From Harmothoe impar (Eukaryota > Annelida > Polychaeta > Phyllodocida > Polynoidae), in the NCBI GenBank assembly GCA_947462335.1, contig OX381720.1:60722233-60786232 (forward strand): a stretch of 64,000 nucleotides of DNA, written 5' to 3'. This document shows, one piece after another, positions 19,796-49,712 of this stretch. Under the pieces are notes generated by a model. The model was given only the letters and a program-made list of their open reading frames with translations, was not told the origin of the DNA and did not search any database. Position 1 is the stretch's first letter. Each line of letters begins with the position of its first letter. Position numbers and translations under genes: made by a program.

Positions 19796-19801
19796 TATCC
19801 T
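19796..19801. repeat. Left target-site duplication of E1 (TATCCT)
   Basis: TATCCT directly precedes the AGTAGTATTG terminus. The same six bases follow the opposite terminus at 28500-28505. The sequences beyond them differ, as expected for a true insertion. Confidence 0.85.
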
Positions 19802-21795: not shown

Positions 21796-22032
21796 GGCTG
21801 ACACGTGTATAGGCGCCTTATAAGTCGGCAGGGGGTAAATACTAGTGAAAAAGGAAGGCAGGTGTGCAGGTAGCTTTCTAACAGACACGTGTGTGCACTA
21901 AGCTGCTTAAGTCTAAACCCACCTGCAGTAGTCAGGTAGCATGTGAAAACTTACTTAACAGATCTCTTAATTGAGTAGAGACTCTGTACTGAGAGAGTCT
22001 TTTCAGCCGTTTAAGAGGATTATCTAGGACAG

Positions 22033-22043
22033 GGTACATAAGG
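22033..22043 (+). promoter_or_regulatory. Candidate proximal TATA variant of the 288-aa gene, left copy
   Basis: GGTACATAAGG lies about 90-100 bp upstream of the first ATG and is followed by pyrimidine-rich CTCACCCATCACAC, similar in layout to the E2 TATA followed by TTCACTCACTCATTC. It is a weak TATA, and the only support is its position. Confidence 0.35.
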
Positions 22044-22130
22044 AGTGAAACGAAGCTCTCACCCATCACACTTTCTCGACCCGCCCTTCATCATCGTAGC
22101 ATCGTCCACTCTACGCTCGCTCAGAATGTT

Positions 22131-22997
22131 ATGATGGTTAGTTCTGCTATTTTCAGCTACTTTTCTTATCGAAGTGTTGACGCTACAGAGCATCGAAACT
22201 CTTTCCAAATGAGTCCAAGAAAGAAAAAGCAACTTCCACTTGAAGCAGGAAGAGAAACAGTGCCCTATGATGCATGTGAGGTAAAGAAACATTGGAAGGA
22301 CGTCACCAAGGAGCAATGGATAGAAGCATGCTTCAACTTCATCGGAACGGAAGTAGTTTCATTTGGACAGAGGGAGAAGATTTTGTTGGAGCTATTTTTC
22401 TTAGCTCCGTATACTTGGCCTGACTGTGGTGAAATTCCTTCAGGTATTTGTTCAGTCTTCGCCATAGAAGTTATCAGGTCTTTGAAGGAGCTTCGATATA
22501 TGCAAGGCACTCACGAGGAGATTGTTCAGAAAATGACGGAATTCGAAACAGGAGAAGACACAATATGGTGCGAGGAGACGACATATACGGACGATGATCT
22601 GGAGTACATCATTTGTAGCCCGTTGGAACATTATGTTAAAGACTTTGAGGACATGCTAGACAGCACTGAGATGAACCCGAAAGAGAGATCCCTTACTGCA
22701 CAGAAAGAGGCCAAAGCTGTGTTGGAAAAGCTCAAGTTTGGTCAAGGATTCACTCTTCAAAGCAGCTGTGTGAGTGTGATAAAAGGCCTTGTGTTGAAAC
22801 ATCCAGACATGAAGTTTTCGCGTGCTGTCGACACACTTCCTTTGCCTGAACTGATGATGAACATGATCGATCCCATCGTACCAACATGTTTCGACTCTGC
22901 CAATTGTCCCATGTATAAAATGGTTTCAAGTTTTGCCCGTGGCCGATGGCTAAACGATCCACTGAAGTCAGAAAACCTCCTTGATTTAATCAACTGA
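22131..22997 (+). CDS. Uncharacterised 288-aa protein of E1, left copy
   Basis: I do not recognise this protein. It is intronless as read, contains no obvious signal peptide or membrane segment, and looks largely alpha-helical and mildly acidic. A basic cluster SPRKKKQ follows the internal Met27, which could be a short nuclear-targeting signal. Clustered acidic residues lie around residues 142-185. The second ATG (22134, A at -3 and G at +4) has the best start context; ATG at 22209 (Met27) is an alternative. The gene occurs twice, in mirror image, with identical protein sequence, and is the only credible gene of E1. That identity suggests either a very recent palindrome or continuing gene conversion, and makes it the likely reason the element is maintained. 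It has no counterpart in E2. Capsid, regulatory or host-interaction roles are all open. Confidence 0.75.
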   Translation: MMVSSAIFSYFSYRSVDATEHRNSFQMSPRKKKQLPLEAGRETVPYDACEVKKHWKDVTKEQWIEACFNFIGTEVVSFGQREKILLELFFLAPYTWPDCGEIPSGICSVFAIEVIRSLKELRYMQGTHEEIVQKMTEFETGEDTIWCEETTYTDDDLEYIICSPLEHYVKDFEDMLDSTEMNPKERSLTAQKEAKAVLEKLKFGQGFTLQSSCVSVIKGLVLKHPDMKFSRAVDTLPLPELMMNMIDPIVPTCFDSANCPMYKMVSSFARGRWLNDPLKSENLLDLIN

Positions 22998-24100: not shown

Positions 24101-24200
24101 TTACAAATAGCCGCTACGAGCAGCACAAGCAGCAGCTGACACTAGTGTCAGCTGCAGCAGCTGCACGAGCTGCTTGTGCTGCTCGTGCAGCGGCTATTTG
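24101..24200. repeat. Hinge of the E1 palindrome
   Basis: The exact centre is a 24-bp perfect palindrome (24132-24155) around ACTAGT. Beyond it the arms are asymmetric: the right side has an extra GCAGCTGCACGAGC-type stretch and GTGCAGCGG where the left has CTACGAGC. The words match the CAG-tract units at about 23.2 kb, so the hinge may derive from that repeat or from an imperfect terminal hairpin. Confidence 0.75.
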
Positions 24201-24985: not shown

Positions 24986-25020
<35 letters not shown>

Positions 25021-25250: not shown

Positions 25251-25303
25251 GAGTAGCTGCTATTACTAATGCTACTAATACTAGTATGAGAAAATACATT
25301 TAG

Positions 25304-26170
25304 TCAGTTGATTAAATCAAGGAGGTTTTCTGACTTCAGTGGATCGTTTAGCCATCGGCCACGGGCAAAACTTGAAACCATTTTATACATGGGACAATTG
25401 GCAGAGTCGAAACATGTTGGTACGATGGGATCGATCATGTTCATCATCAGTTCAGGCAAAGGAAGTGTGTCGACAGCACGCGAAAACTTCATGTCTGGAT
25501 GTTTCAACACAAGGCCTTTTATCACACTCACACAGCTGCTTTGAAGAGTGAATCCTTGACCAAACTTGAGCTTTTCCAACACAGCTTTGGCCTCTTTCTG
25601 TGCAGTAAGGGATCTCTCTTTCGGGTTCATCTCAGTGCTGTCTAGCATGTCCTCAAAGTCTTTAACATAATGTTCCAACGGGCTACAAATGATGTACTCC
25701 AGATCATCGTCCGTATATGTCGTCTCCTCGCACCATATTGTGTCTTCTCCTGTTTCGAATTCCGTCATTTTCTGAACAATCTCCTCGTGAGTGCCTTGCA
25801 TATATCGAAGCTCCTTCAAAGACCTGATAACTTCTATGGCGAAGACTGAACAAATACCTGAAGGAATTTCACCACAGTCAGGCCAAGTATACGGAGCTAA
25901 GAAAAATAGCTCCAACAAAATCTTCTCCCTCTGTCCAAATGAAACTACTTCCGTTCCGATGAAGTTGAAGCATGCTTCTATCCATTGCTCCTTGGTGACG
26001 TCCTTCCAATGTTTCTTTACCTCACATGCATCATAGGGCACTGTTTCTCTTCCTGCTTCAAGTGGAAGTTGCTTTTTCTTTCTTGGACTCATTTGGAAAG
26101 AGTTTCGATGCTCTGTAGCGTCAACACTTCGATAAGAAAAGTAGCTGAAAATAGCAGAACTAACCATCAT
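25304..26170 (-). CDS. Uncharacterised 288-aa protein of E1, right copy
   Basis: Mirror-image copy of the gene at 22131-22997, with the identical 288-residue product. Function is unknown; no domain is recognised by eye and the predicted character is soluble and helical, with a basic SPRKKKQ segment after Met27. Its upstream region differs from the left copy by one visible base (CGACGC instead of CGAAGC, about 45 bp after the TATA-like word). The two copies are transcribed towards the hinge, so their transcripts converge and could pair, which might provoke RNA interference. Start choice is as for the left copy: second ATG favoured by context. Confidence 0.75.
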   Translation of the reverse strand: MMVSSAIFSYFSYRSVDATEHRNSFQMSPRKKKQLPLEAGRETVPYDACEVKKHWKDVTKEQWIEACFNFIGTEVVSFGQREKILLELFFLAPYTWPDCGEIPSGICSVFAIEVIRSLKELRYMQGTHEEIVQKMTEFETGEDTIWCEETTYTDDDLEYIICSPLEHYVKDFEDMLDSTEMNPKERSLTAQKEAKAVLEKLKFGQGFTLQSSCVSVIKGLVLKHPDMKFSRAVDTLPLPELMMNMIDPIVPTCFDSANCPMYKMVSSFARGRWLNDPLKSENLLDLIN

Positions 26171-26505
26171 AACATTCTGAGCGAGCGTAGAGTGGACGAT
26201 GCTACGATGATGAAGGGCGGGTCGAGAAAGTGTGATGGGTGAGAGCGTCGTTTCACTCCTTATGTACCCTGTCCTAGATAATCCTCTTAAACGGCTGAAA
26301 AGACTCTCTCAGTACAGAGTCTCTACTCAATTAAGAGATCTGTTAAGTAAGTTTTCACATGCTACCTGACTACTGCAGGTGGGTTTAGACTTAAGCAGCT
26401 TAGTGCACACACGTGTCTGTTAGAAAGCTACCTGCACACCTGCCTTCCTTTTTCACTAGTATTTACCCCCTGCCGACTTATAAGGCGCCTATACACGTGT
26501 CAGCC

Positions 26506-28499: not shown

Positions 28500-28505
28500 T
28501 ATCCT
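28500..28505. repeat. Right target-site duplication of E1 (TATCCT)
   Basis: TATCCT follows ...ATACTACT exactly and matches 19796-19801. Confidence 0.85.
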
Positions 28506-29614: not shown

Positions 29615-30520
29615 GACAAAGGCCAGAGGATATTTTGGTATCATTCCCCCCGAGGTGAGGCTTGGGCCGTACACCAGGAAGCCGCCATGGGACTTTCACT
29701 TTATTTCATGGTTTTTACTATTCAAAATATGTTTAATTGTAAATAAATGACCATACAAATTTGAACAAATGATGACGTCACAGGTCATGTGATACAGGAA
29801 CACTGTATCACCAGGTAGGGGACAGGAATACCTTTTTGGGACGTACCACTTTTGTGGTACAGTCCTGTCAAGTAGACCATACCAGTATTGTGGTACTGTG
29901 CATGGTTCTGGGGCGTACCATTTAACTAGTACATTTGGTGTGATCATTAGACCATGAACAGCCAGCTGTACTAGAATACTGACCCCCATTGGTGGGTCTG
30001 CAGTACTCACAGAACAATGGGTCTTAGCTATACCAACACTGGGGGCATGGATGGGGGAGAAAACATCAGCTTTTTTTTAAGATTTTATCTTTTTATGACC
30101 TTACCATTCCATTAGGAGATAAAACCAAAACGTAGAGGGATAGATCAGTATCCATTCTATTAACCTGTGTAATTAGATTTATCAGCAAAAATTCGGAAAT
30201 GGATTTTGCTAGGTCTTTATGAGAGGGTTTTCTGAGTGTAGCAACTTCAATGCATTATATCTGAGTAAATACAAATCATTGTAGTTTGTAAATCGGCTAG
30301 TGTATAGATTGAAATATCCTCTTTCCAATGGTACCATACATGATATATAACATATCAGGATTATTAGATAAATCATATATACATGCTTAGATACACTGAC
30401 CCTGGTGGGCAGGCTTTTATACTAGTACGTCCTAGGTAGTGAGTACAAGTACAATTCATTTAGGGCGTACTAGAATAGTCGTTCTGTCCTCAACCTGATC
30501 ACAGAGGGCATGGAATAAGG
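29615..30520. repeat. Dispersed repeat, empty-site paralogue of the E2 locus
   Basis: This block matches 35175-35813 followed by 47427-47490, that is, the two flanks of E2 joined together (shared words CAGGTAGGGGACAGGAA, ACCAGTATTGTGGTACTG, TGGTACCATACATGATATA). At 30436-30441 it carries GTAGTG followed by AGTACAAG, where the E2 locus has one ATGGTG on each side of the element. It therefore shows the pre-insertion state. No protein coding remnant was recognised. Confidence 0.7.
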
Positions 30521-35174: not shown

Positions 35175-35813
35175 CAGGTAGGGGACAGGAACACCTTTTT
35201 GGGACGTACTACTTTTGTGGAACAGTCCTGTTAAGTAGACTATACCAGTATTGTGGTACTGTGCATGGTTTTGGGGTGTACCATTTAATTGGTACATTTG
35301 GTGTGATCATTAGACCATAACCATTAGCCCATGACAAGGTCTGCAGCTCCCTCAGTACCTTATCAGTAATCACAGAACAATGGGTACTATCTATACAAAC
35401 ACTGTGGGTATGGTTTGGAAAGAAAATCCCACTTTTTCTCAATATTTTCCCAATTTGTGACCTTACCCTTCCATTAAAAGATAAAACCAAAACGCAGAGT
35501 GATAGATCAGTGTCTAAGCTACTACTCTGTATGCTTATTTTTATCAGCAAATGTAACAGAAAATTCGGAAATTGATTTTGCTGGGTCTCTATGGGACTGT
35601 TTTAAGAATGTGGCTTGTTCAATGTATGTTATCTGAATAAATATAAATTATAGTAGTTTGTAAATAGGCTAGTGTATAGATTGAAATATCCTATTTCCAA
35701 TGGTACCATACATGATATATAGTGCATTAGGATTACAAGAGAAATCTTATGTAAATGCCTAAATATACTGATGCTGGTGGGCAGGCCACTATACTAGTAC
35801 GGCCTAGATGGTG
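35175..35813. repeat. Dispersed repeat, left part, interrupted by E2
   Basis: Matches 29815-30441 closely. The repeat resumes after E2 at 47433. This supplies independent proof that E2 is an insertion. Confidence 0.7.
35808..35813. repeat. Left target-site duplication of E2 (ATGGTG)
   Basis: ATGGTG immediately before AGTAGTATAG; identical to 47427-47432. Confidence 0.9.
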
Positions 35814-36235
35814 AGTAGTATAGTATGTATCGGAACGGGACTATAGTTAAGTACTGTTTATTACTCAATCGACCTGCAGCCAATCAGAGGCCTCCATTTG
35901 GTCACGTGACCGGAAGTGACCTACTTAGGGGATTAGTGGTGAGGTCACGTGACCTAGTTAGCCAATCAGAGGCCGCCATTTGGTCACGTGACCGGAAGTG
36001 AGGTCATATGACCTACTTATGGACCGGAAGTGACGTCATATGACCTACTTAGGGGACCGGAAGTGACCTACTTTAGGATCACGTGACCGGAAGTGACCTG
36101 ATGAGTCACGTGACCGGAAGTGACGTCACATGACCTAATGGCCAACCAGAAGTGAGTGACCTGATTGAGGATCACGTGACCGGAAGTGACCTGATTGATC
36201 ACGTGACCGGAAGAAGAAGAAGAAGTGACGTCACG
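35814..36235. repeat. E2 left terminal inverted repeat
   Basis: The first ~115 bp match the right end with two or so differences, then similarity continues with indels. The region is a dense array of CACGTG E-boxes (seven), CCGGAAG ETS-like words (eight), TGACGTCA CRE-like words and CCAATCAGAGG NF-Y-like words (two). Composite ACCGGAAGTGACGTCA appears repeatedly. Confidence 0.8.
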
Positions 36236-36885
36236 CGACTTAATGAAGAGATGAGCGTCTTTAAGGGGTCACGCGCTTTAAAATGTGATATCTTTTTTTT
36301 TTTGGAGGAGGAGGAGGAGGAGGAGAGGAGGAGGAGGAGGCGAGTCTCTTATTTTTTTCGGTAAACTAATAAAAAACACTACGATATAAGTTTTTGTTTT
36401 TTTTCATTTTTTATTGTTTTACGAGCGACTGGAAGTGACTTATTGAACTAGGTAGAAGCGTTCTTTAGAGTGTATAAAGGGGGGGGGGGAGGGGAGAGGA
36501 GGGGAGGGGAGGGAAGGGGAGGGGGGCCCCTTTAAGATGCATGGGGAGGGGGGCGCTTTTAGGATGCATGGGGCGAGTGGTGGGGGGGGGAGGGGGGGAG
36601 GGGGGAGGGGGGCACTCTAGGGGGGTGGGGGGGCACTCTAAGGGGCGTTTGTCTCTTTTAAGAAAAAAAGAAAAGAAAAAGATTTCAATCGAGAGACACG
36701 CTTCTTCCTCTCGAGAGGAAGAAGCGTGTCTCTTCGTTTTTTTTTGTTTATCACGTGCTTCGATGAGGCGATCAGCTGCGACTGGAGGAAGTGACACTTT
36801 AAGAGGGCGCGCGTCTTAATTGTTATGATATTTTTTTTTTTTTACTTACTAATAAAGAAGACGTATGAAAATAAAACACAACAAT
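36236..36885. other. E2 left subterminal region with simple repeats and a perfect palindrome
   Basis: Contains (GAG)n near 36303-36345, G-runs at 36480-36640, a perfect 42-bp palindrome at 36692-36733 (centre TCGA), and an inverted homologue of the right subterminal region: AAGAAGACGTATGAAAATAA near 36854 is mirrored near 46900. Most of 36240-36790 has no partner on the right and may be an expansion. Confidence 0.6.
36692..36733. repeat. Perfect 42-bp palindrome
   Basis: AGAGACACGCTTCTTCCTCTC followed immediately by its exact reverse complement. It would extrude as a loopless cruciform or form a stable RNA hairpin. It is unique in the element and just inside the left TIR. Confidence 0.85.
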
Positions 36886-37626
36886 TCACATGTCCGTCGT
36901 TCTCGTTGTTTCTTGCTTGATAAAGTCAAGTAATATCGCGATGCCGAGGTCAAACTTTCCCATGTCCTCAGTCAACACTCGAAGGAGTTCAAAAGGTGTA
37001 CCGCCGGCACCGTCAGCTTCATCTTGCCACATTTTCAACACTCGGAAGGCCCACTCAGCGGGACTTCCTCCGTATTCGCATTCTTCAGCGATCTTATCTA
37101 ACCTCTCAGGCGACAATTTTAAATGGTCCCCCACCTCTTTCCACCTGCTACCTAGACGTCTGCCGAGGGTGCCCAAGTGCTTATGCATCGCGCGCGAGTC
37201 GGGGTTTTCGAAATCCAACCCCTGTCTGTGGAGAAGGGACATCCACTGAGCCAACAGTTCCACGCGTCTAATGCGGGTGAAGACGCGACCGAGCTCTCCC
37301 CATCTATGACGATGCGGGGTTTCACCCCACCAGACTCGGAACATCGCCGTACACAGCTCCTCCGGTGTCTTGACACTGCGCTCTACTAGAGCAACCATAC
37401 GGGCGGCGGTAACTTTTAAGCTACTGCCCAACTCTCTCCAACAGCCGCTCAACTCTTTACCTAGTTGACGAAGCAAGGCGTCGCTATAGGCTAACCGCCG
37501 CTGTCCTACCTCTCTGTTCTCCCCATCGGTCTGCCTCGCGCGTCTCACGTCGTCAAGCCGCATTAACTTTTTTTCAGGTGGACAAGGCGGTGAAGGCGAG
37601 CTTGAAAGTGGAATAGCTTGAGCCAT
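36886..37626 (-). CDS. Tandem death-domain protein (246 aa) of E2
   Basis: Two six-helix death-domain-like segments fill the protein. The first covers about residues 48-130 (LLRQLGKELSGCWRELGSSL, then a Trp-rich W99-W100 and W109). The second covers about residues 148-235 (LGRRLGSRWKEVGDHLKLS, W162, then VLKMW at 196-200 and LLRVLTEDMGKFDLGIAIL). The spacing of LG, W, the L-S-x-E-x-L turn and the late W matches the death-domain pattern in host adaptors and receptors. A Pro/Ser-rich, basic leader (1-45) precedes them. No catalytic or membrane segment is seen. Death domains assemble apoptotic and innate-immune complexes by homotypic contact, so a mobile element encoding only such domains suggests interference with host signalling; that is inference. 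The upstream TATA at 37765-37772 supports real expression. The ATG at 37626 is preceded by a GGC-repeat leader. Confidence 0.8.
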   Translation of the reverse strand: MAQAIPLSSSPSPPCPPEKKLMRLDDVRRARQTDGENREVGQRRLAYSDALLRQLGKELSGCWRELGSSLKVTAARMVALVERSVKTPEELCTAMFRVWWGETPHRHRWGELGRVFTRIRRVELLAQWMSLLHRQGLDFENPDSRAMHKHLGTLGRRLGSRWKEVGDHLKLSPERLDKIAEECEYGGSPAEWAFRVLKMWQDEADGAGGTPFELLRVLTEDMGKFDLGIAILLDFIKQETTRTTDM

Positions 37627-37639
37627 CTCGTCTCGTCTT

Positions 37640-37640
37640 G

Positions 37641-37701
<61 letters not shown>

Positions 37702-37705
37702 TGGT
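37640..37705. repeat. GGC triplet repeat in the leader of the death-domain gene
   Basis: About twenty GGC or GGT triplets on the plus strand lie directly upstream of the minus-strand ATG, so a transcript would carry a GCC-rich 5-prime leader. Confidence 0.9.
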
Positions 37706-37764
37706 GGTAGTAGACGTTACTGTGGTCAGAGGCGATATGGTTTTTTTCCAACAGAAATCAGAGC

Positions 37765-37772
37765 TTTTTATA
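37765..37772 (-). promoter_or_regulatory. TATA box of the death-domain gene
   Basis: Reads TATAAAAA on the minus strand, within CTGTATAAAAAGCTC, about 140 bp upstream of the ATG at 37626. Confidence 0.55.
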
Positions 37773-37849
37773 CAGAGGGAGTTTAATCCCATTTCCAACA
37801 GCACTCCAGCTGTGTAGCGACCTATCCGCATGACGCTTTTTCAACCGCT

Positions 37850-38640
37850 CCGCTCCTTAAGAGCTTAGATGACGAGGGGTGTGTCATCGCTATCCGTGGA
37901 GACCAGCTGAAAACGGTGTTTCTTCCTCATCCATAGCCTTACCTCCTACCCCCTACCTGAGGACGTCTCCCTCCCTCTGACATTCATTGTAACAAACGTC
38001 AGAGGTCAGGTGAAAATCGGATTTTTTTCATGCACAGCCTTAGTCAGCTGTCACCCCTCCCTATTGAACTAGCCGGCCACCGCCTGGCCGGCCCGGTCTA
38101 CTCACCACGGCAGGAGGTGGTGATTTTTTTTTTGTCTTACACTTAAGTCGCTCACCACATGCACACGCCTCTACTCACAGACAGACATGTTCGTCTTAGG
38201 GGGGTCCTGCTTCACGCCACACGCCTCCTGTAGTTTTTTTTTGTATACACACTCTAAGCTCATCACCGTTAATCCTTTATACAGCTAACGCGCGCTGAAT
38301 GGCTGAACAGGGTGGTAAGTGGCTTAGCTCATGACAGTGGATCCCTCAAAAAAAAAAGAGGGGAAAGGGATCCAGCTGAAAACGTCATACCTTATGTCTT
38401 TGTGAATGGCCGCCGGTCAGTCGACGGCAGCAACCGCTTAATCCTTTATACAGCTAATGCACGTTGAATTGCTGAACAGGGTGGTAAGCGGCTTAGCTCA
38501 TGACAGTCGATCTCTCAAAAAGGGGGGAAAGGGATCCAGCTGAAAACGTCATGCCTTATGTCTTTTGTTTCTCTTTGTGAATGGCCGCCGGCCAGCCGGC
38601 GGCAGCTGAACAGGGTCAGTAAGTAGCTTAGCTCTAGAAG
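37850..38640. promoter_or_regulatory. Divergent control region of E2 with iterated modules shared with E1
   Basis: This non-coding stretch separates the divergent death-domain and PC4-like genes. It holds CAGCTGAAAAC words at about 37908, 38374, 38538 and a variant at 38009, two copies of a ~170-bp block containing TAATCCTTTATACAGCTAA and GGTGGTAAG-GGCTTAGCTCATG (about 38269 and 38451), and the E1-type module with CACTCACCACGGC (E2: TACTCACCACGGC), ACACTTAAGTCGCTCACCAC and TGTATACACACTCTAAG (38095-38265). Shared order and wording with E1 indicate common regulation of both elements. Confidence 0.65.
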
Positions 38641-38650
38641 CGAGAAGGCG

Positions 38651-38658
38651 TATATAAG
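38651..38658 (+). promoter_or_regulatory. TATA box of the PC4-like gene
   Basis: TATATAAG within GGCGTATATAAGGGG, 59 bp before the chosen ATG, followed by an initiator-like TTCACTCACTCATTC. The surrounding 40 bp are conserved in E1 at about 21752-21795. Confidence 0.65.
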
Positions 38659-38716
38659 GGGTCTGGAAACCTCCATTCACTCACTCATTCTTTTGCTGCT
38701 CTCTACAGTCACCACC

Positions 38717-40291
38717 ATGAGCAAAAGACAACACCTAGCGCCGTCCAAGAACAAGAAGACTACGCGGAACAGCGCTCGTTTAGCGTCAGTGCCTCCTCTT
38801 GCTACTGAAAATGAGACTACCGCCGCAGCCGCTTGGTCTTATCACCCTCCCGCTGTAGCGAGCGCTCGCGGCAGTAGTAGTAGTAGTAGCAGTAGTAGTA
38901 GCAGTAGTAGTACTAGTAGTAGTAGTAGTAGTAGTAGTAGTACTACTGGTAGTAGTCGTCGTGCTAGCGACGTTGTTACACTCGCGACGGTACACGTTGC
39001 TGCTAAGCGCGCTGCCGCTGCTACTGCCGCCCCGCCTGCTGCGGCTGCTGCTGCTGCTGCACCTGCTATCGCTGCGCCTGCTACTGCTGCGCCTGCTGAG
39101 GCTGCTGCGCCTGCTGCTGCTGCTGCTGCTGCTGCTGCTTCTGCTGCACCTGCTGCTACCGCTACTACTACTGACGACAACGCTCCTGGCACAGCGCAGT
39201 ACTGGCAACCGGGTTTTTACCTCCCCACTACTGTTGATGACTTTGATGACCTGCCGCACGTTGCACAGCCCCTCTCCTCCACCACTACATCGACCGACGC
39301 CCTCGACGCCGCTCGCGCTGAGAGTGACAGCTATTCGGACACTCAGCCCCTAAACCGAGAAGAAGAGGAGGAGGAGGAGGAGGAGGAGGAGCAGCAGCAA
39401 CAGGGTGAGACAGAGAACGACGCTGACGACGAGGCGTACGAACAACCCGAAGGGAAAGGGGTGGGCGGTACGTTTTTCGGCTTCCCTCTTCGACCTTTCG
39501 ACCTCACTTCCTCCACTAGTAGCGTCCCGTCCGGTCCGTGGCGACTGCCCTCACCGCCACCTTACGAGGGCGGCGGCGCTTCATCTTCTACCGCTACACT
39601 CAGCACCGACGGCGTGTGGCTGCGCTGTTCCAACAACGAGGCCTCGGATACCACCAGCGCTGACGCTGCTCCTGCTATCGGTTCTGCTGCTGATTCAGCT
39701 CACGCTGATGGTGTTACTCATCCTGCGGGTGTGAAACGTTCTAAGGTGAGTTCCAGAACAACAAGGCCTAGTAAGAAGAGAAAAATACAAGAAAAAGAAC
39801 GAGATGGACGAGAAGAAGCAGAGAAAACCTTCTCCCGTCTTCTCGGGTTAGAGTTCTGCTTAGACGGAGCTTTGACGCTGGAGATCTGGGAGGACGTGGC
39901 TAGACTGTCTAGGAGGCCGCGCTACACAAAAGACGGCCAGGTGAAAGAGGCGTCTCTGACCAGAAGCAAGAGAGTGCACTTCACGGCCGACGCGCTGCGC
40001 GAGCTAATAGCACGCATCGCCGATATCCGCGCAGTGGTGCGCATACGCGACACAGCGGCCGCGCAAGGAAAACCTAATCACACCCCCTGGTTCGCAGTGC
40101 TGGATGAGGAGGGCGAAGTGTACGCAGCTGTGAGCTACTACAGCGGTAAGAACCTCGTCCACGTGCGCAAGTACGAAGGTCCTGACAAAAAACCCACACA
40201 GCAGGGAGTGACGCTGTCCGCCAGAGCGCTCAAAGAGTTGGATGACAAAACAGAGATCATTCTGAAATATCTCGGCATAGATTCGGAATGA
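38717..40291 (+). CDS. PC4-like ssDNA-binding-domain protein (524 aa) of E2
   Basis: The start at 38717 (ACCACCATGA) is favoured over the upstream in-frame codon at 38693 by its strong Kozak context; it gives MSKRQ. Layout: basic N-terminus; Ser-rich tract (about 52-76); Ala-rich tract (about 95-152); acidic Glu/Gln tract (about 214-232); a lysine-rich nuclear-signal-like PSKKRKIQ near 350; and a C-terminal domain. Residues about 458-520 (VYAAVSYYSGKNLVHVRKY, then KPTQQGVTLSARALKEL) follow the PC4/Sub1 pattern of a beta sheet with V-x-I/V-R-x-Y, then P-T-x-x-G-V/I-S/T-L and a final helix. PC4-family domains bind single-stranded DNA and melted promoters, so a role in replication beside the polymerase or in late transcription is likely. 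The low-complexity half is unusual for PC4 proteins, which are normally small. The polymerase gene begins 200 bp downstream on the same strand. Confidence 0.75.
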   Translation: MSKRQHLAPSKNKKTTRNSARLASVPPLATENETTAAAAWSYHPPAVASARGSSSSSSSSSSSSSTSSSSSSSSSTTGSSRRASDVVTLATVHVAAKRAAAATAAPPAAAAAAAAPAIAAPATAAPAEAAAPAAAAAAAAASAAPAATATTTDDNAPGTAQYWQPGFYLPTTVDDFDDLPHVAQPLSSTTTSTDALDAARAESDSYSDTQPLNREEEEEEEEEEEQQQQGETENDADDEAYEQPEGKGVGGTFFGFPLRPFDLTSSTSSVPSGPWRLPSPPPYEGGGASSSTATLSTDGVWLRCSNNEASDTTSADAAPAIGSAADSAHADGVTHPAGVKRSKVSSRTTRPSKKRKIQEKERDGREEAEKTFSRLLGLEFCLDGALTLEIWEDVARLSRRPRYTKDGQVKEASLTRSKRVHFTADALRELIARIADIRAVVRIRDTAAAQGKPNHTPWFAVLDEEGEVYAAVSYYSGKNLVHVRKYEGPDKKPTQQGVTLSARALKELDDKTEIILKYLGIDSE

Positions 40292-40306
40292 GAGACGCTC
40301 AACGCT

Positions 40307-40310
<4 letters not shown>

Positions 40311-40347
<37 letters not shown>

Positions 40348-40460
40348 CGTTTGACGTACGCTGTATGAGACAGACAGACGGATACACAGACAGCAGACAG
40401 AAAGATAAATAGATAGATAGATAGACAGATAGATTGATAGATAGATAGATAGTTAGACGG
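40311..40460. repeat. CA and GATA microsatellites between the PC4-like and polymerase genes
   Basis: (CA)n at about 40313-40346 and (GATA)n at about 40404-40452. No AATAAA or TATA box was seen in the 200-bp spacer, so the polymerase may be on a shared transcript or use a TATA-less promoter. Confidence 0.85.
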
Positions 40461-40491
40461 CTAAGTAGTTGGTAACTGAGTGAAAAAAAAC

Positions 40492-43400
40492 ATGACACAG
40501 TACGTATGCGAAAAGTGTTTCAAAATGTTTAAAAGACCGTACAACCACGAGAGACACGTAGAAAATTGTAGAGTAGTACCTAAGTTTTGCCCTCTATGCG
40601 GCGAAGGCGATTGCCGAAAGATCGCCTGTCGACGCGAATCTCTGGACGGGGTGACCGTCCCTCCGCGCATATGTGCTGTACCGAACGGGGAGGAAACGTT
40701 CACGGCGAATTGGCCTGCGATACAAACGGGCGTCAGGATGCACGGGACTCGCGTGAGTGTAACAAACTTCAGGCTACCAACCGGCGAGTTGAGTGACGCT
40801 GTAGATACTATGCGTCGCATTCACTTGACACAAAGATTCAGATACAAAGTGGGTTTCTCGGTAGGCTTACTCTTACAACACAGAGAAGACAAGAGCAAAC
40901 TGCGCTACTTTCACGCCTCCCAGAACAACGCAACTCTCATACAACCGCTCCCTACTATAACTAATTCAGAAACTTTGGAAGAGCTCCTCTCAAAGATGGA
41001 AAACACCGTCGCTTGCGAGGAAGTACGGAAACTTTGCGACGCTGACACCAAGTGGCACGTTCTTTTTCCTACCAATTTGAACATTTGCGTTTACATGGGA
41101 CCGGGGGATTTCCCCATAGGCGGTAGGATCACTCAGGCCGGTCGAGTTGGAAAGAGAAGCGGCGTGTTAGATTTTCCCAACAAGGACAACCTCTGCATCT
41201 TCCGCTGCATTTCCTTTCACTTATACAACACCAGCAAGCGCGCTTCAGATTTGTTACGTCAGTTCTGTCCCGCTGCCACACCTGAATCCTTTCCGGGTCT
41301 GAACATCCGCGACTTACCCGCGTTAGAGAACTTGTTTGACGTACAGATAGCGGTTTACACCGCGTCGCGTCAAGTGCCGGGGCGGAAGTTGAGAAGACGC
41401 GTTACTCTGATCAGACCGCCTTCCAGAACTCTGGCCGCCCGAGGTAAAGTCAACCTACACCTGACGGCGAAAGGCGGTTTGCACGTCTCTCTCGTCACGG
41501 ACTTCAACGCGTACGCGGGCATATACGAATGTTGCAAGTGTAAGGCGGCGTTCACCACCGAGTTCTTGCTGAAGAGACACAGGAACCAGCTTTCCTCTTG
41601 CCGACAAGTCAAGTTGCGCTACGTAGGTGGCATCTACCAAAATTCGAGAACGATTTTCGAAGCGCTAGCAGACTTCTCCATTTTTCCCCCCGACGGACAT
41701 TCCGGAATCTACCCTTACAAGATCGCCTTCGATTTCGAGGCTTTCTTCAGACCGTGCAAAGAACCGTCGACGGAACACGTGTCCCTGCTGTGGGATCACG
41801 TCCCTTTGTCGGCTAGCGTCGCATCCGACTTTCCGGGGTGGGAGGGGCCCGTCTGCTTCGTCAGAGAATCCGACGCAGATTCCGATCCCTTGTTGGACCG
41901 AGTTTTAAATCACATAAACGAGAACGCCAAAGTCATCGGGGAAGCTGTGCTAGAACTTTACCGACCGACCTTAGCGAAGTTAGATGCGGCGATAGGTGAA
42001 GCTCTCCTGCTGGAGGAGGCGACGTTCACCCCTTCTCCAGGCGGCTTCGCTGCGGCTCAGACCAGACACCCGTTAGTTCAACTGAAGAAGCGTCTTCTGA
42101 GATACATCCGTCAAGCTCCAGTCGTGGGCTTCAACTCGGGGCGTTACGACTTGAACCTGATCAAAATACGCCTTCACTCGTTCTTCGCCTCCGGAGACCG
42201 AAGAAACCAAGAATTCAGCGTCATAAAGAGAAGCAATCAATACTTGGCGGTTTACACACAGCACACGGTTTTCTTGGACGTAGTCAACTATTTGGCACCC
42301 GGTTACAACTACGCGACCTATTTGCGAGCTTTCACCAGGAACGAAGAGAAAGGTCACTTTCCTTACGAATGGATGACGTCTACCAGGAAACTGGCAAACA
42401 GAACGCTGCCACCGAGATCGGCTTTCGACAGCGAGCTGACGGGCGTCAAAATGTCCGAATCCGACTACGCCGCATGTCAGAAAGTTTGGTCCGACGAGAA
42501 GATGCAAACTATGGAAGACTACTTGATCCACTACAACAACAAAGACGTCAAACCTTTCATAGAAGCTCTGAAAAATCACGCTAAATTTTTCCAAGATCGC
42601 GGCATTGACATGTTGAAAGACGGAGTTTCTCTCGCCGGTTTGACTTTACGGTTCCTCTTCCAAAACCTAGAAGACGCGTTCACAACGTTCCCCCAGTTCG
42701 ACGCCGTCCTCCACGCTCTGATCAAAGAAAATCTAGTCGGCGGTCCTTCCATCATCTTCCATAGATTTCACGAGAAGGGCACCACGCGGATAAGGGAGCA
42801 CAAGTACGGCGAAGAAGCGAGACCGTGCCAACACATCCTAGGACTAGACGCTAACTCTCTGTACTTGCGCTGCATGAGCGAAGCGCACTGCACGGGCTAT
42901 TACGCGGTGAGACGGCCCGAGACCGAGTTCAAGCCCGAAATTAGGCAAAGAAACTCTCACAGCGCTTTGGAGTGGTTACGCTTCGTAGAGCACGACCGCG
43001 ACGTGAAACTGCGCCACGCTTTGAACGGCGGCGAGATGGTTGTAGGCTGTCGGAGAATTCGCGTGGACGGGTTTCACGCGGCCTCTAATACGGTTTTCCA
43101 GTTTCACGGGTGTTGGTTCCACGCTCACGAGTGCATACCGTCGCACCGATATCAGTGCGCTTCACTGAGAGAGGAGAGACGCGACAGAACGACCAGAGTA
43201 AGCGCTTACTTGAAAGCGCTAGGTCACAAGCTGGTCGTCGTGTGGGAGTGCGAATGGCGAGAGATGAAGCGTCGAGATGAGCGGGTCAAGGCCTCCCAAC
43301 AACGCTGGAAGGTTGACGCTTTGAAAGTGTCTCGAAACGCGATGAGCGAGAGCGACATCCTTTCCGCTGTGAAAGAGGAGAAAATGTTCGGTTTAGTTCA

Positions 43401-44586
43401 AGTGGACATCACTACGCCGCCTCACCTACGAGACTACTTCGAAGAAATGACCCCCGTTTTCAAGAACGCGACCGTTTCAAAATCGGACATAGGACCTCAC
43501 ATGTCAGACTTTGCGCAGGAAGAAAAGCTGTTGAACACGCCTCAGAGATGTCTGATAGGGAGTTACCACGGAAAAAATATTCTCTTGGGAACGCCGCTTC
43601 TCAAGTGGTATTTAGAGCACGGTTTGATAGTCACCAAAGTGCAGCTGGTGGTAGAATACCTACCTAAACGCTCCTTTGCCGGTTTCGCGGACGAAGTAAC
43701 GGCGGCGCGAAGACGTGGCGACGTGAACGAGAACGAGAAAATTCTGTCAGACTGTTACAAGTTAATGGGAAACGCTACGTACGGTAAAACAATCTGCAAC
43801 AAAGAAAAACACACGGCGGTGAGATACACTGACAGTCGGAAGTTCGAACTATTGGCCAATTCGTGGCGCTTCAAAAAGGCGTCCGAGTTGAGTTCCGATC
43901 TGTTTGAAGTCGAACTACAACCGAAAACAGTCAACAACAACCTCCCTATTCAAATAGGGTTCATGGTATACCAGTACGCGAAGTTGAAAATGTTAGAGTT
44001 CACATACGACTTCTTGGATAGATTCGTCGATCGGCGCGATTATGCCCTTTGTCAAATGGACACCGACAGTCTTTACATGGCTCTCAGCGGTGACACGTTG
44101 GATGACCTAGTCAAACCTCGCCTGAGAGAGACGTACTTCAGAGAGAAACGAAAGTGGCTTCCGACAGCGGTGTGCGACGATCACTTAGAGCTTTTCGTGA
44201 AGACAAAAACGGAAAGAGTGCGAGAATGGTGTCCGCCGCCCGGCGGATGTTGTGAGAGACGGTACCTTCACGATCTGAGAACTTCGGGGCTTATGAAAGC
44301 GGAGTGGGAAGGTGACGGGATCCTAAGTCTCAACCCTAAGACTTACATTTGCTACGATCGAGTCAGCGACACCGGTGAAAGAAAATCCAAAAAATGGAGT
44401 GCAAAAGGCGTACAGAAGAAACAAAACCCTCAGGAACCAGACGACTTCTTGGATGTTCTTCGCCAACGAAAAACTCTCATTGCTGTAAATAGAAACTTCA
44501 AAGTGGTGCGAAACAAAATGGTCACCTACACCATAGAGAAAGACGGCGTGCCCCAGTGGGCACAGCAACACTTAATAAGTGACTAA
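40492..44586 (+). CDS. polB: Family B DNA polymerase (1364 aa) of E2, organellar/viral PolB_2 type
   Basis: Start taken at the first ATG (40492, MTQYVCEKC); a longer frame would need a GTG. Domains in order: a C2HC finger (C6, C9, H22, C26); an OTU-protease-like segment with D232-N-L-C235-I-F-R238 and a late H331; a second finger (C347, C350); the 3-prime-to-5-prime exonuclease with Exo I D414-x-E416, Exo II N548...D553 and Exo III Y681-x3-D685; palm motif A D786-x2-SLY791; an insertion with D859-G, FHGCWFHAHEC (871-881) and WECEW (918-922), typical of PolBs of invertebrate mobile elements and nuclease-like; motif B K1090-x3-N1094-x2-YG1098; and motif C MDTDS (D1190, D1192). All catalytic residues seen are intact, with no frameshift over 4.1 kb, so the gene looks functional or recently so. 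It would copy the element, probably by protein-primed synthesis from the TIRs as in Polintons (family knowledge). No terminal-protein domain was identified. Confidence 0.93.
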   Translation: MTQYVCEKCFKMFKRPYNHERHVENCRVVPKFCPLCGEGDCRKIACRRESLDGVTVPPRICAVPNGEETFTANWPAIQTGVRMHGTRVSVTNFRLPTGELSDAVDTMRRIHLTQRFRYKVGFSVGLLLQHREDKSKLRYFHASQNNATLIQPLPTITNSETLEELLSKMENTVACEEVRKLCDADTKWHVLFPTNLNICVYMGPGDFPIGGRITQAGRVGKRSGVLDFPNKDNLCIFRCISFHLYNTSKRASDLLRQFCPAATPESFPGLNIRDLPALENLFDVQIAVYTASRQVPGRKLRRRVTLIRPPSRTLAARGKVNLHLTAKGGLHVSLVTDFNAYAGIYECCKCKAAFTTEFLLKRHRNQLSSCRQVKLRYVGGIYQNSRTIFEALADFSIFPPDGHSGIYPYKIAFDFEAFFRPCKEPSTEHVSLLWDHVPLSASVASDFPGWEGPVCFVRESDADSDPLLDRVLNHINENAKVIGEAVLELYRPTLAKLDAAIGEALLLEEATFTPSPGGFAAAQTRHPLVQLKKRLLRYIRQAPVVGFNSGRYDLNLIKIRLHSFFASGDRRNQEFSVIKRSNQYLAVYTQHTVFLDVVNYLAPGYNYATYLRAFTRNEEKGHFPYEWMTSTRKLANRTLPPRSAFDSELTGVKMSESDYAACQKVWSDEKMQTMEDYLIHYNNKDVKPFIEALKNHAKFFQDRGIDMLKDGVSLAGLTLRFLFQNLEDAFTTFPQFDAVLHALIKENLVGGPSIIFHRFHEKGTTRIREHKYGEEARPCQHILGLDANSLYLRCMSEAHCTGYYAVRRPETEFKPEIRQRNSHSALEWLRFVEHDRDVKLRHALNGGEMVVGCRRIRVDGFHAASNTVFQFHGCWFHAHECIPSHRYQCASLREERRDRTTRVSAYLKALGHKLVVVWECEWREMKRRDERVKASQQRWKVDALKVSRNAMSESDILSAVKEEKMFGLVQVDITTPPHLRDYFEEMTPVFKNATVSKSDIGPHMSDFAQEEKLLNTPQRCLIGSYHGKNILLGTPLLKWYLEHGLIVTKVQLVVEYLPKRSFAGFADEVTAARRRGDVNENEKILSDCYKLMGNATYGKTICNKEKHTAVRYTDSRKFELLANSWRFKKASELSSDLFEVELQPKTVNNNLPIQIGFMVYQYAKLKMLEFTYDFLDRFVDRRDYALCQMDTDSLYMALSGDTLDDLVKPRLRETYFREKRKWLPTAVCDDHLELFVKTKTERVREWCPPPGGCCERRYLHDLRTSGLMKAEWEGDGILSLNPKTYICYDRVSDTGERKSKKWSAKGVQKKQNPQEPDDFLDVLRQRKTLIAVNRNFKVVRNKMVTYTIEKDGVPQWAQQHLISD

Positions 44587-44984
44587 TAAGCTCTCCAATG
44601 AAGTGCTTATTATCCATCTATATTGTGGCTAGAATGTAAGAACTATTAGTCAGCTAATCTGCAGCACTTATTAAGCCTTTCAAAGCAGTGGTTATCAAGA
44701 GGTTCAATAATTCAGCTAATAAGGGCAACAAAAGTCAAATTTATTCAAAGATTATAATTGTGACACTACCGCACTGCTATAAAGCAGCACTTATAAGTGA
44801 CTTGCTCTGCAGTTCTTATTAGGCACTTCAAAGCAGTGATTAGTAATAAGCTGAAGTGTGCCACTATATAAAAAGGAATTCCACTGAAACTTTCTGCTGT
44901 TTATTCAAGCATATAACATTCATAAGCAGCTCAGTATACATACATCAGAAATTCATGATTGTTGTACAAATTAATGTTGTCAAT

Positions 44985-45062
44985 GGGAATCAAACTCCTT
45001 ACCTTCAGATGTAAAGTCCAGTGTGCTATTGCATGAGCTAGTGGGGCTGATGATAAGTGGTG
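44985..45062 (-). repeat. tRNA-like SINE fragment
   Basis: On the minus strand, a box-A-like TAGCTCATGCAATAGC is followed about 30 bp later by a box-B-like GGAGTTTGATTCCC. This resembles a degraded tRNA-derived SINE head, not a functional tRNA (no clean acceptor stem). Confidence 0.4.
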
Positions 45063-45796
45063 GTCCTAAACCTTACTGTACCCCTAGCATACCCTGGGTA
45101 CACTGCAAAAGCAGCCCCTCATATATCATGCTCACGCACTGGCTAAAAAGGGCTTTATTTGCAGTGAGATACAATCAAAAACTGTCTTATTTGAATCTGA
45201 TTGAATGAAAAACTCTCTCAATTCATTTTGGAAATAGATGGGAAGTATTGTTCTCTTCAACTATGCACCCATGCTCTTTGCATAAAGCAAAAGCAAAAGG
45301 TTCGGATGAGTTTTTCTCCACTTCTTTTCGGTTTTGAAAAGTGTTTATCAAACCTCTCACAATATACAGAAAAGTGGGAATAGCAGTATTATATCAAAAT
45401 TGAGTTTGTATTGACAGTGTACAAGTCATAGTCAACCACTGTGAACACATCCTAGCTCCTGACCCTGGCGAAACTGACACACCTGATTACCAACTGGTGA
45501 CTGTGGTGCAATGTGCCTTGACCGTACTCACTGTCAGATAGCGTGGGATGGCTGCTGTCACAACCTTTTCTCAGAGTCTCCAGTGGTCCATTGTAGCCTT
45601 TTCCCCTCCCGGCTAGGACCACCTTCGTCAATACTGATATCTGCTATCTTTTTACCAGTCGCAAGTGTATTATGCTTCTACGGGCTGAAGCGGATCTGTG
45701 CAAGTCTCATGGGAGACCAGGACACTGAAGGTTCACTGCAGTCTGTCTACTGACACTTACAGACGCGACTCCTGTCAGGACAACTCTTGGGAAAAT

Positions 45797-45885
45797 TTGG
45801 TGCCGTGGCTCCTTCTGGGATCGCACCCAGGACCTCTCACACACAAGTCCAGCGACTTACTCATTAGGCCACCAAATCTCCTTGC
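45797..45885 (-). repeat. tRNA-like SINE fragment
   Basis: The minus strand reads TGGTGGCCTAATGAGTAAG, then TGGACTTG, then GGTCCTGGGTGCGATCCC, the arrangement of internal Pol III boxes A and B in tRNA-derived SINEs. No cloverleaf closes properly. Confidence 0.45.
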
Positions 45886-46683
45886 AGAATCATGGTGTAT
45901 TCCCCCCCTCAAATAGGTACCAGAACAGAAGACAACAAGGAGACACAAAGTATTCTCAAAGATCACACAACTTACCCTTGGGTATTAATATGTTATGACA
46001 TAAAGTGGTTCTTAGACAATACAAATACAGTCCTTATCAAGGGATGTCAATGCAGTGACTAATAAGAACTTCATTTGCGGGGCTTAATATCCATTATAAA
46101 GAAGGTGGTTAATCAGTTACTAACAAGCCCTGCTTTTGCAGCCCTGCAGAACCTCTCTAATAAGGTCTTACATGTGATGGTTATTAGACAGTGAAAAAGC
46201 AGCCCTTATCAGGGCATGTCGATTCACTGCTTAATAAGGACTTATCTTGCACTGACTGATAAGAACTTAATTTGCAGGGCTTGATATTCATAACAAAGAC
46301 AATAGTTAATCAGCTATGAATAAGCCCTACTTTTGCAGCCCTGCATAACCCCAAATAAGGTCTTACATGTGATGGTTATTAGACAGTGCAAAAGCAGCCT
46401 TTATCAGGGGATATTGATGCACTGCTTAATAAGGACTAAAAATGTAGGCCTTCTTAGTTATTATGAATATCATTAATAAGTCCTGTTTCTGTAGCCCTTC
46501 AGCTGTTGTAGCTAACCAGAGCTGCATGGCCCCGCCTAATAAGGGAGGCATATGTAGCCCTGCATGTGCATCACTTATTAAAAGCTTAATATTCTGTTAA
46601 TTATTGAGTACAAATACCATGCTAAATGTTACCAACTATTGTGTGCTGCCTGAATGGATAATACGCCCTGCAAGGTCATTAGC

Positions 46684-46999
46684 CACCAGAGCAGCTACTA
46701 ATCAGTGGTGGCGTGCCCACTGGGGCGCTACTTGTATTATAAGCGTCGCGTGCATTCTGACGGTGTGACAACGAGTCCTTTAGAGATATGAAAAAAAAAA
46801 AAAATAAGCGTGTGCATCTTTTCAAAAATAGAGTGTTTATCAAGATTGAAAAAAAAATAAATAAAAAAAATAAAATAAAATATTGTTGTGTTTTTATTTT
46901 CATACGTCTTCTTTTACTAGTAAGTCGCGCAGTCTCTTAAAGCGTCACTCATGTGACGACGTCGCTTCCAGTCACGTGATCCTAAAGACCCTCACTTCC
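46684..46999. other. E2 right subterminal region
   Basis: Contains A-runs (46793-46806, 46850-46875) and the inverted homologue (46875-46945) of the left segment 36790-36885. No gene. Confidence 0.5.
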
Positions 47000-47426
47000 T
47001 AAACAAAAAACTTCTTCTTCCGCTCACGTGATCAATCAAGTCACTTCCGGTCACGTGATCCTCAATGAGGTCACTCACTTCCGGTCGGCCATTAGGTCAT
47101 GTGACGTCACTTCCGCTCACGTGACTCATCAGGTCACTTCCGGTCACGTGATCCTAAATTAGGTCATATGACGTCACTTCCGGTCCCCTAAGTAGGTCAG
47201 TAGGTTACCCAGAATGCACCACTAATCCCCTAAGTAGGTCACTTCCGGTCACGTGACCAAATGGTGGCCTCTGATTGGCTGCAGGGTTACCCAGAATGCA
47301 CCACTAATCCCCTAAGTAGGTCACTTCCGGTCACGTGACCAAATGGAGGCCTCTGATTGGCTGCATGTCGATTGAGTAATAAACAGTACTTAACTATAGT
47401 CCCGTTCCGATACATACTATACTACT
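47000..47426. repeat. E2 right terminal inverted repeat
   Basis: Reverse complement of 35814-36235 with indels. It contains an internal duplication of a ~110-bp block (CCACTAATCCCCTAAGTAGG to CTGATTGGCTGCA) absent from the left end. Rich in CACGTG, CACTTCCGG and TGACGTCA words. Confidence 0.8.
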
Positions 47427-47432
47427 ATGGTG
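47427..47432. repeat. Right target-site duplication of E2 (ATGGTG)
   Basis: Follows ...ATACTACT directly; identical to 35808-35813. The dispersed repeat then resumes with AGTACAAG. Confidence 0.9.
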
Positions 47433-48392: not shown

Positions 48393-48829
48393 GCTGTACT
48401 GCAGTATGCCACTACTACTCCGACACACCACACACTGGCTCAGCCATCAATGGAGCTTGTCCCAGAGCCAGCTGAGCTAGCTAGACACATTCATTGATAA
48501 CCTTGACTGGCCTTCCACACTTGTGTTCATGTATCCTAAAGGCATTAACTTGTATAGGTTTTATCGAATGCACGCACACTTAGAAGTGAAACTACTAGTG
48601 AACCTTCTATTGAAACAGGCTTAGGCCCAAAAAAAACTTTGTTATTTATCAATACAAGTGGCTTACTTGACAGACCTGCTTGTTCTATGGAGTATATATC
48701 GCGGTTATCATAGTTACAGTATTATTGGTATTAGGTTAAATACAGTTTGCTATATGTACATATGTATTGATAATATATTGATTACCCCCACCTCACACAC
48801 ATGCATACATCATCCTGCCCAGATTTCTA
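48393..48829. other. No gene recognised
   Basis: AT-rich DNA with no supported feature. Confidence 0.3.
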
Positions 48830-49712
48830 CATCAACTAGGTAAGGGTCCTGGTGGTACCTAGTCCTGTACAGACTCCTGCCACAACTAGGTAAGGGTCCT
48901 GGTGGTACCTAGTCCTGTACTGACTCCTGCCACAACTAGGTGAGGGTCCTGGTGGTACCTAGTCCTGTACAGACTCCTGCCACAACTAGGTAAGGGTCCT
49001 GGTGGTACCTAGTCCTGTACAGACTCCTGCCACAACTAGGTAAGGGTCCTGGTGGTACCTAGTCCTGTACAGACTCCTGCCACAACTAGGTAAGGGTCCT
49101 GGTGGTACCTAGTCCTGTACAGACTCCTGCCACAACTAGGTAAGGGTCCTGGTGGTACCTAGTCCTATACAGACTCCTGCCACAACTAGGTAAGGGTCCT
49201 GGTGGTACCTAGTCCTACACAGACTCCTGCCACAACTAGGTAAGGGTACTGGTGGTACCTAGTCCTGTACTGACTCCTGCCACAACTAGGTAAGGGTCCT
49301 GGTGGTACCTAGTCCTGTACAGACTCCTGCCACAACTAGGTAAGGGTACTGGTGGTACCTAGTCCTGTACAGACTCCTGCCACAACTAGGTAGGGATCCT
49401 GGTGGTACCTAGTCCTACACAGACTCCTGCCACAACTAGGTAGGGATCCTGGTGGTACCTAGTCCTATACAGACTCCTGCCACAACTAGGTAAGGGTCCT
49501 GGTGGTACCTAGTCCTACACAGACTCCTGCCACAACTAGGTAAGGGTACTGGTGGTACCTAGTCCTGTACAGACTCCTGCCACAACTAGGTAAGGGTCCT
49601 GGTGGTACCTAGTCCTACACAGACTCCTGCCACAACTAGGTAAGGGTACTGGTGGTACCTAGTCCTGTACAGACTCCTATCACAACTAGGTAAGGGTCCT
49701 CGAGGTACCTAG
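48830..49712. repeat. 50-bp minisatellite, about 17 copies
   Basis: The unit contains CACAACTAGGTAAGGGTCCT and GGTGGTACCTAGTCCTGTAC plus AGACTCCTGC. Spacing is exactly 50 bp and units are 95 percent or more alike, so it is young. Each unit has a near-consensus splice donor AG/GTAAGG, which is incidental unless transcribed. Confidence 0.95.

What the first reader, a model, noticed from the sequence alone, without database searches (positions are those of the whole stretch)
35814..47426. A Polinton-type insertion reduced to PolB, a PC4-like protein and a tandem death-domain protein
Seen: AG...CT ends, long TIRs, a perfect 6-bp target duplication (ATGGTG), an intact 1364-aa PolB, a PC4-like gene and a double-death-domain gene. 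Known: Polintons and adintoviruses normally also carry a retroviral-type integrase, FtsK-like ATPase, protease and capsid genes. Inferred: this is a separate, reduced or multipartite family in which replication is self-encoded but integration and packaging come from elsewhere. I know of no described element with this gene set.
Basis: partly seen in the sequence, partly recalled or inferred. Interest (0 to 1): 0.92.

Follow-up and report, generated by a model that had tools for sequence, protein, structure and literature searches.

The report
A Maverick split into two segments
The insertion appears to be the replication half of a Maverick-type virus whose genome is divided: a neighbouring insertion with the same ends carries the integrase and virion-type genes but no polymerase.

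Summary
The insertion at 35814-47426 (A) is real: AGTAGT...ACTACT ends, TIRs, 6-bp duplication ATGGTG and a paralogous empty site in the window. Its PolB is interrupted near the 3' end by a ~2.2-kb host-like insert that two other copies lack.
A's gene set recurs: a copy on contig C15 is 9,410 bp with TSD CTGGAT and, of the genes tested, only the death-domain, PC4-like and PolB genes. PolB has at least 34 near-identical stop-free copies, A included.
A's terminal sequence ends four more insertions within 264 kb. One, E2 (10.5 kb), holds the complementary set: rve-chromodomain integrase, IVa2/A32-type ATPase, adenovirus-type protease and two ORFs capsid-like by recall, with no PolB detected. Two others are palindromes with nearly the same centre; one has E2's TIR, one has A's.
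Best reading: a bipartite Maverick/Polinton with palindromic satellites. 'Multipartite' is supported; E2 is the likely 'elsewhere'. Not settled: only one E2-type copy was seen, its genome search did not complete, and a full-length parent is not excluded.

The parts
35814..47426 (.). Element A: replication segment of the proposed divided Maverick (DD, PC4-like, PolB), 11,613 bp including a later ~2.2-kb insert
   Evidence: TIRs, TSD, paralogous empty site; same gene set in C15 copy L030:403-9812
35808..35813 (+). TSD ATGGTG, left copy
47427..47432 (+). TSD ATGGTG, right copy
35814..36219 (+). Left TIR of A (outer ~128 bp 99% to right TIR; 87% over 421 columns)
47011..47426 (-). Right TIR of A
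36886..37626 (-). Tandem death-domain protein gene, 246 aa
   Evidence: Pfam Death 3.8e-6, 27.4 bits, 2 stretches at E <= 1; also in the C15 copy
38091..38300 (+). Internal block shared (about 74-75%) with element B and E2, upstream of the PC4-like gene
38693..40291 (+). PC4-like gene (532-aa ORF; PC4-like domain at the C-terminus)
   Evidence: Pfam PC4 1.2e-4, 22 bits, below cut-off 25
40480..44586 (+). PolB ORF (1368 aa in this copy; its last residues come from the insert)
   Evidence: Pfam DNA_pol_B_2 6.7e-7; 34 scored copies genome-wide, this one included
44600..46700 (.). Host-like, CpG-depleted insert in A (approximate bounds), with short inverted repeats at its ends
   Evidence: CpG; ends; absent from L029 and L030
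19802..28499 (.). Element B: palindromic insertion with the same terminal sequence; two 4,349-bp arms, 99.5% identical
19796..19801 (+). TSD TATCCT of B, left
28500..28505 (+). TSD TATCCT of B, right
21993..22997 (+). ORF of 334 aa in the left arm of B, no Pfam match
25304..26308 (-). Same ORF in the right arm of B
24118..24180 (.). Fold-back centre of B (approximate), nearly the same in E3
29812..30497 (+). Host repeat copy representing a paralogous empty site for A

Best explanation
A is the replication segment of a divided (at least bipartite) Maverick/Polinton. Segment I (A; 9.4 kb in the C15 copy) encodes PolB, a PC4-like protein (PC4 binds single-stranded DNA; recalled) and a tandem death-domain protein. 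Segment II (E2; 10.5 kb) encodes integrase, packaging-type ATPase, protease and capsid-like proteins, with no PolB detected. Proposed working: PolB made from segment I starts protein-primed strand-displacement synthesis at the common terminal sequence of every segment; the PC4-like protein coats displaced strands; the death-domain protein dampens host death or inflammatory signalling; the segment-II integrase joins every segment carrying the common ends to host DNA with a 6-bp duplication; segment-II virion proteins package them. The palindromes (B, E3) are fold-back products of strand-displacement synthesis that kept a terminus at each end and so spread as satellites, picking up termini of either segment. 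Shown: shared ends, TSDs, complementary gene sets, recurrence of segment I, termini of both kinds on one palindrome type, nearly the same palindrome centre. Inferred: priming mode, trans-action, packaging, how termini were exchanged, and every protein function.
For: Five insertions in 264 kb share the terminal sequence (first 86 bp 95-99% in the pairs with E1), each with its own perfect 6-bp TSD. E2: rve 4.3e-6 and Chromo 6.2e-4, Adeno_IVa2 1.3e-5, Peptidase_C5 3.7e-4 (IVa2 is above its curated cut-off, the other three below; the ATPase ORF also just passes the RNA_helicase cut-off, 21.6 against 21.5). tblastn of 15 protein queries (PC4 by its last 172 residues only) at E <= 1e-3: no A gene in E2 and no E2 gene in A. 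The C15 copy is complete with TSD CTGGAT and, of those 15 queries, matches only PolB, PC4 and DD. PolB: 34 scored copies, none with a stop, on 16 contigs. Codon changes between A and two copies: 7 synonymous to 1 non-synonymous and 4 to 1, which suggests selection on function, though the numbers are small and changes private to A may be counted twice. B and E3 have nearly the same interior and centre but termini matching E2 (392 bp, about 99%) and A's right end (239 bp, about 99%) respectively. An internal block is common to A, B and E2. A and E2 termini agree only over ~128 columns (89-90%) and then differ, while each is matched by its own opposite end over 421-440 columns (87% for A, 94% for E2): long-separate segments rather than recent deletions of one another.
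Against: Only one segment-II copy was seen; the genome search with its MCP-like ORF did not complete. Surroundings of 31 of the 33 other scored PolB copies were not seen, and only 34 of 7429 first-look candidates were scored, so a PolB-plus-capsid element could exist. The C4 copy (L029) is rearranged and its left end was not in view; so 1 of 2 extra copies looked at has the exact layout of A. The PC4 frame has a stop in L030 and a frameshift in L029. MCP and penton identity rests on recalled motifs: no Pfam match, no useful PDB sequence match for the MCP-like ORF, failed fold. Termini could also have been exchanged by recombination between integrated copies. No direct evidence of virions, co-packaging or trans-integration.
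Confidence: 0.66

Rival explanations
1. A and E2 are reciprocal internal-deletion derivatives of one ordinary monopartite Maverick that exists elsewhere in the genome; the short elements are non-autonomous and live off it.
For: Elements without PolB or integrase exist here (B, E3, and E1, whose L005 part has one ORF of at least 90 aa). The PolB search scored only 34 of 7429 first-look candidates, and most surroundings were not seen.
Against: A's right terminal region follows PolB closely, and the C15 copy has the same layout, 9.4 kb, without A's insert. A and E2 share only ~128 columns of terminus (89-90%) and internal blocks at ~75%, far more diverged than the copies of segment I that were compared (95.7-99.9% by piece). 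No trace of E2 genes in A or of A genes in E2 by tblastn. Of the six elements seen end to end (A, B, E1, E2, E3, C15 copy), none matched both modules.
Confidence: 0.23
2. Segment II is an autonomous virus using another polymerase, and A is a PolB-bearing satellite or linear plasmid-like hyperparasite that borrows its integrase and capsid.
For: Loss of the morphogenetic module is known: passages of PMC11071308 derive cytoplasmic linear plasmids and transpovirons that way. PMC11071296 section 16 mentions virion-gene genomes without recognisable PolB and integrase. A carries no integrase by Pfam or tblastn.
Against: No polymerase family was found among the ten E2 ORF pieces scanned (the plus-strand 247-aa ORF was not scanned). 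The shared termini suggest a shared replication origin.
Confidence: 0.08
3. A separate reduced Polinton family whose integration comes from unrelated elements.
For: No integrase, ATPase, protease or capsid gene was detected in A.
Against: An insertion with the same terminal sequence carries those gene types 42 kb away.
Confidence: 0.03

Closest known systems
Vertebrate Mavericks/Polintons (Barreat & Katzourakis 2021, PMC8097293; sections 7 and 8 and passages seen)
   Same: (AGT)2//(ACT)2 end motif, 6-bp TSD, TIR length in the reported range (46-1,447 bp), PolB and integrase/ATPase/protease gene types
   Different: There the conserved ORFs (eight, seven in Xenopus tropicalis) lie in one element of 12.7-24.6 kb; here PolB and the integration/virion set lie in separate 9.4- and 10.5-kb elements
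Adintoviruses and other meldviruses (PMC11071296, section 16 and passages seen; Starrett 2021 not held)
   Same: rve integrase with C-terminal chromodomain (E2); adenovirus-type protease and ATPase; large PolB. That section also reports genomes with adenovirus-class virion proteins lacking recognisable PolB and integrase
   Different: Here PolB and virion-type genes are on separate TIR-sharing elements, with the integrase beside the virion-type genes; hexon identity by BLASTp could not be tested
Bidnaviridae and segmented bidna-like Vesanto virus (PMC4061559 and PMC8363768; passages seen)
   Same: Divided genome with Polinton-type PolB; similar terminal inverted repeats reported on many Vesanto segments
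   Different: Those are ssDNA viruses with parvovirus-type capsid and helicase; here the second segment carries integrase, IVa2/A32-type ATPase and adenovirus-type protease, and the segments are integrated with TSDs
Transpovirons and cytoplasmic linear plasmids (PMC11071308; passages seen)
   Same: Polinton-derived or related PolB elements without a morphogenetic module
   Different: A shares termini with a resident virion-gene element and integrates with a 6-bp TSD

Membership tests
Vertebrate Maverick | (AGT)2//(ACT)2 termini | tested here: met
   A, B, E1, E2, E3 and the C15 copy
Vertebrate Maverick | 6-bp TSD | tested here: met
   Perfect in 6 of 6 elements with both ends in view
Vertebrate Maverick | Core ORFs incl. 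PolB, integrase, ATPase, capsids, protease in one element | tested here: not met
   A and C15 copy: PolB but no E2 gene; E2: integrase, ATPase, protease, capsid-like (recall), no PolB
Adintovirus | rve integrase with C-terminal chromodomain | tested here: inconclusive
   On E2 (rve 4.3e-6, Chromo 6.2e-4, both below curated cut-offs); not detected in A
Adintovirus | PolB with N-terminal OTU-like domain | tested here: inconclusive
   Pfam gave no OTU hit; a motif was seen by eye from recall only
Adintovirus | Hexon recognisable by BLASTp | not testable with these tools
   Protein database off; no Pfam or useful PDB match for the MCP-like ORF, AF2 pLDDT 30
Bidnaviridae | Parvovirus-type capsid and SF3 helicase (NS1) with PolB | tested here: not met
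   No such Pfam family in three A proteins, ten E2 ORF pieces and the B ORF

The most novel reading that the evidence does not exclude
A truly multipartite dsDNA virus lineage of the Maverick kind, endogenous and recently active: at least a PolB segment and an integrase/virion segment, plus palindromic satellite segments that trade termini with both, all integrated in trans by one integrase.
Probability: 0.55. Interest if true: 0.95.

Novelty: new variant of a known kind. Interest (0 to 1): 0.9.

Why it matters
Intact vertebrate Mavericks are described as carrying replication and virion genes in one element (PMC8097293 section 7). A stable split into two TIR-sharing segments, with dozens of near-identical PolB copies, would show that a lineage of this kind can become multipartite. 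It would also give a model for how bidnaviruses and virus-derived linear plasmids arose, and for how satellites form. My paper searches (listings only, plus passages of the papers named) showed no divided Polinton; the library lacks most subscription papers, and the shared protein database was off.

Tried and rejected
Rejected: 'intact PolB in this copy' (the 33 other scored copies). Rejected: capsid or integrase genes hidden in A's non-coding tail; no frame above 89 aa is listed there (frames of 50 aa or more), it is host-like, and it is absent from two other copies. AF2 of the MCP-like ORF failed (pLDDT 30). AF2 of the death-domain protein is weak (pLDDT 50); Foldseek had no hit at E <= 1e-3, and the ankyrin-G death domain appeared with probability 0.97, E 0.49. 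Viral contigs gave no confirmed relatives for PolB, DD, PC4, the TIR or the MCP-like ORF; the phage collection gave none for the MCP-like ORF. ORF334 has no Pfam match and one PDB hit at E 0.48; its four copies differ at 1-3 positions, all non-synonymous, too few to show selection. A TIR search of the genome returned nothing, not even the window itself, probably because the tool skips very common words. An 80-kb sample of contig C1 held no TIR core (up to 5 mismatches) and no gene match, so the density near the window need not be the genome average. Host identity was not determined. No Rfam or tRNA hit. PMC12567637 was looked at in passages; nothing on a divided Polinton there.
Full report
Observation. 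A (35814-47426) begins AGTAGT and ends ACTACT between two ATGGTG copies. The outer 128 bp of the TIRs are 99% complementary; 421 alignment columns are 87%. A host repeat at 29812-30497 aligns at 81% straight through A's insertion point with one copy of TSD-like bases, so A arrived by insertion without evident loss. A's coding part has CpG o/e about 0.6-1.4 in a window mostly at 0.2-0.6.

Genes of A. PolB ORF: DNA_pol_B_2, 29 bits, cut-off 25.8. Death: 27.4 bits, cut-off 22.6, two stretches at E <= 1. PC4: 22 bits, below its cut-off 25. PolB also shows a weak Vsr-endonuclease-like stretch (E 0.02). By eye, and from recall only, PolB has exonuclease and polymerase motifs and an N-terminal OTU-like stretch; Pfam gave no OTU hit. 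Near its 3' end PolB runs into a ~2.2-kb CpG-depleted block with short inverted repeats at its ends. Two other copies lack the block, and the 33 other scored copies have frames of 1377-1380 aa.

More elements with the same ends. The TIR core occurs 4 times in the window (0 expected) and 10 times, in five convergent pairs with no solo end, in the 264 kb of C20:60622233-60886232 (up to 4 mismatches; cores cut by a stretch border would be missed). The five are A; B (19802-28499, TSD TATCCT); E1 (L005:3027-L006:2680, ACAAGG); E2 (L013:5140-L014:5639, CATTTG); E3 (L016:8056-L017:6883, TGGAGG). Eighty kb of C1 held none.

E2 is complementary to A. Its ORFs include integrase (rve 27.4 bits, cut-off 32.6; Chromo 20.1, cut-off 25.1), ATPase (Adeno_IVa2 24.6, cut-off 21; Pox_A32 20.1, cut-off 22.8; RNA_helicase 21.6, cut-off 21.5) and protease (Peptidase_C5 20.7, cut-off 21.3). 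It also has 404- and 438-aa ORFs that I recognise from recall as penton-like and MCP-like; neither has a Pfam match, and the MCP-like ORF has no useful PDB match. The integrase frame crosses the border of two fetched stretches and was read in two pieces. Not scanned: the plus-strand 247-aa ORF and small frames. tblastn of 15 queries (PC4 by its last 172 residues) against the 264 kb found no A gene in E2 and no E2 gene in A.

Recurrence of A. PolB has 34 scored copies (of 7429 first-look candidates, so a lower bound), including A, on 16 contigs, none with a stop. Two were fetched. L030 (C15) is a complete 9,410-bp element with TSD CTGGAT; of the 15 queries it matches DD, PC4 and PolB only, and its pieces are 97.6-99.8% identical to A. 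Its PC4 frame has one stop in the low-complexity N-terminal part, and the domain lies in a 321-aa frame. L029 (C4) has the same right half (95.7-99.9% by piece), but its left part is a second PolB stretch joined to A-like sequence; its left end and any DD gene are not in view, and its PC4 frame is shifted. Between A and these copies PolB shows 7 synonymous to 1 non-synonymous and 4 to 1 changed codons, which suggests recent selection on function; the numbers are small and changes private to A may count twice.

Palindromes and exchanged ends. B is two 4,349-bp arms, 99.5% identical; E3 is the same kind (97.9-99.2% to B by piece). Both have nearly the same centre, so one fold-back event probably preceded their spread. 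Yet B's first 392 bp match E2's TIR (98.5-99.2%), while E3's first 239 bp match A's right TIR (98.7-99.2%). B's arm also holds an E2 block (96% over 406 bp) and A-like blocks (74-85%). The simplest reading is that all were replicated by machinery that accepts all these ends; recombination between integrated copies is an alternative. E1 has 713-bp TIRs that are 99.4% alike and one ORF of 90 aa or more in its L005 part (its L006 part was not listed).

Why divided rather than deleted. A and E2 share ~128 columns of terminus at 89-90% and internal blocks at about 75%, far more diverged than the compared copies of segment I. tblastn found no trace of the other's genes in either. A's layout recurs on another contig. 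Intact vertebrate Mavericks described in PMC8097293 (sections 7 and 8 seen) carry PolB and virion genes in one 12.7-24.6-kb element; A plus E2 would sum to about 20 kb. Against novelty, PMC11071296 section 16 already mentions genomes with adenovirus-class virion proteins that lack recognisable PolB and integrase.

Limits. The number of E2-like copies, and whether any PolB+MCP element exists, is unknown. The host was not identified. Functions are inferred from families.

Noticed in passing
window 19802-28499: 8.7-kb near-perfect palindromic insertion with the same ends as A and, in each arm, a 334-aa ORF without a Pfam match.
   Followed up: yes
L029 (C4:1409500-1419499): Rearranged PolB-segment copy: a second PolB stretch joined upstream of the PC4 region in place of the death-domain side; may be a recombination or concatemer product.
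   Followed up: partly
C19:20413290-20417363 and 20428672-20432745: Two near-identical PolB copies 15.4 kb apart on the same strand; surroundings not seen.
   Followed up: no
B arm positions ~3816-3986; L001:6044-6490; L022:406-851: A ~171-bp repeat, in inverted pairs elsewhere in the genome, lies inside the palindrome arms: the satellite may have captured host DNA before it folded back.
   Followed up: partly
window 44600-46700: Insert in A has end inverted repeats starting CAGTGGGCAC, like a hAT-type transposon (recalled), but no clear target duplication was established.
   Followed up: partly
window 35814-36250 and 46960-47426: TIRs packed with CACGTGAC, CCGGAAGT and TGACGTCA motifs (E-box/ETS/CRE-like, names recalled), suggesting promoter-rich termini.
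   Followed up: no
window 4866-8059, 10490-12294, 48813-49726, 56834-57554: Large minisatellite arrays in the flanking host DNA.
   Followed up: no
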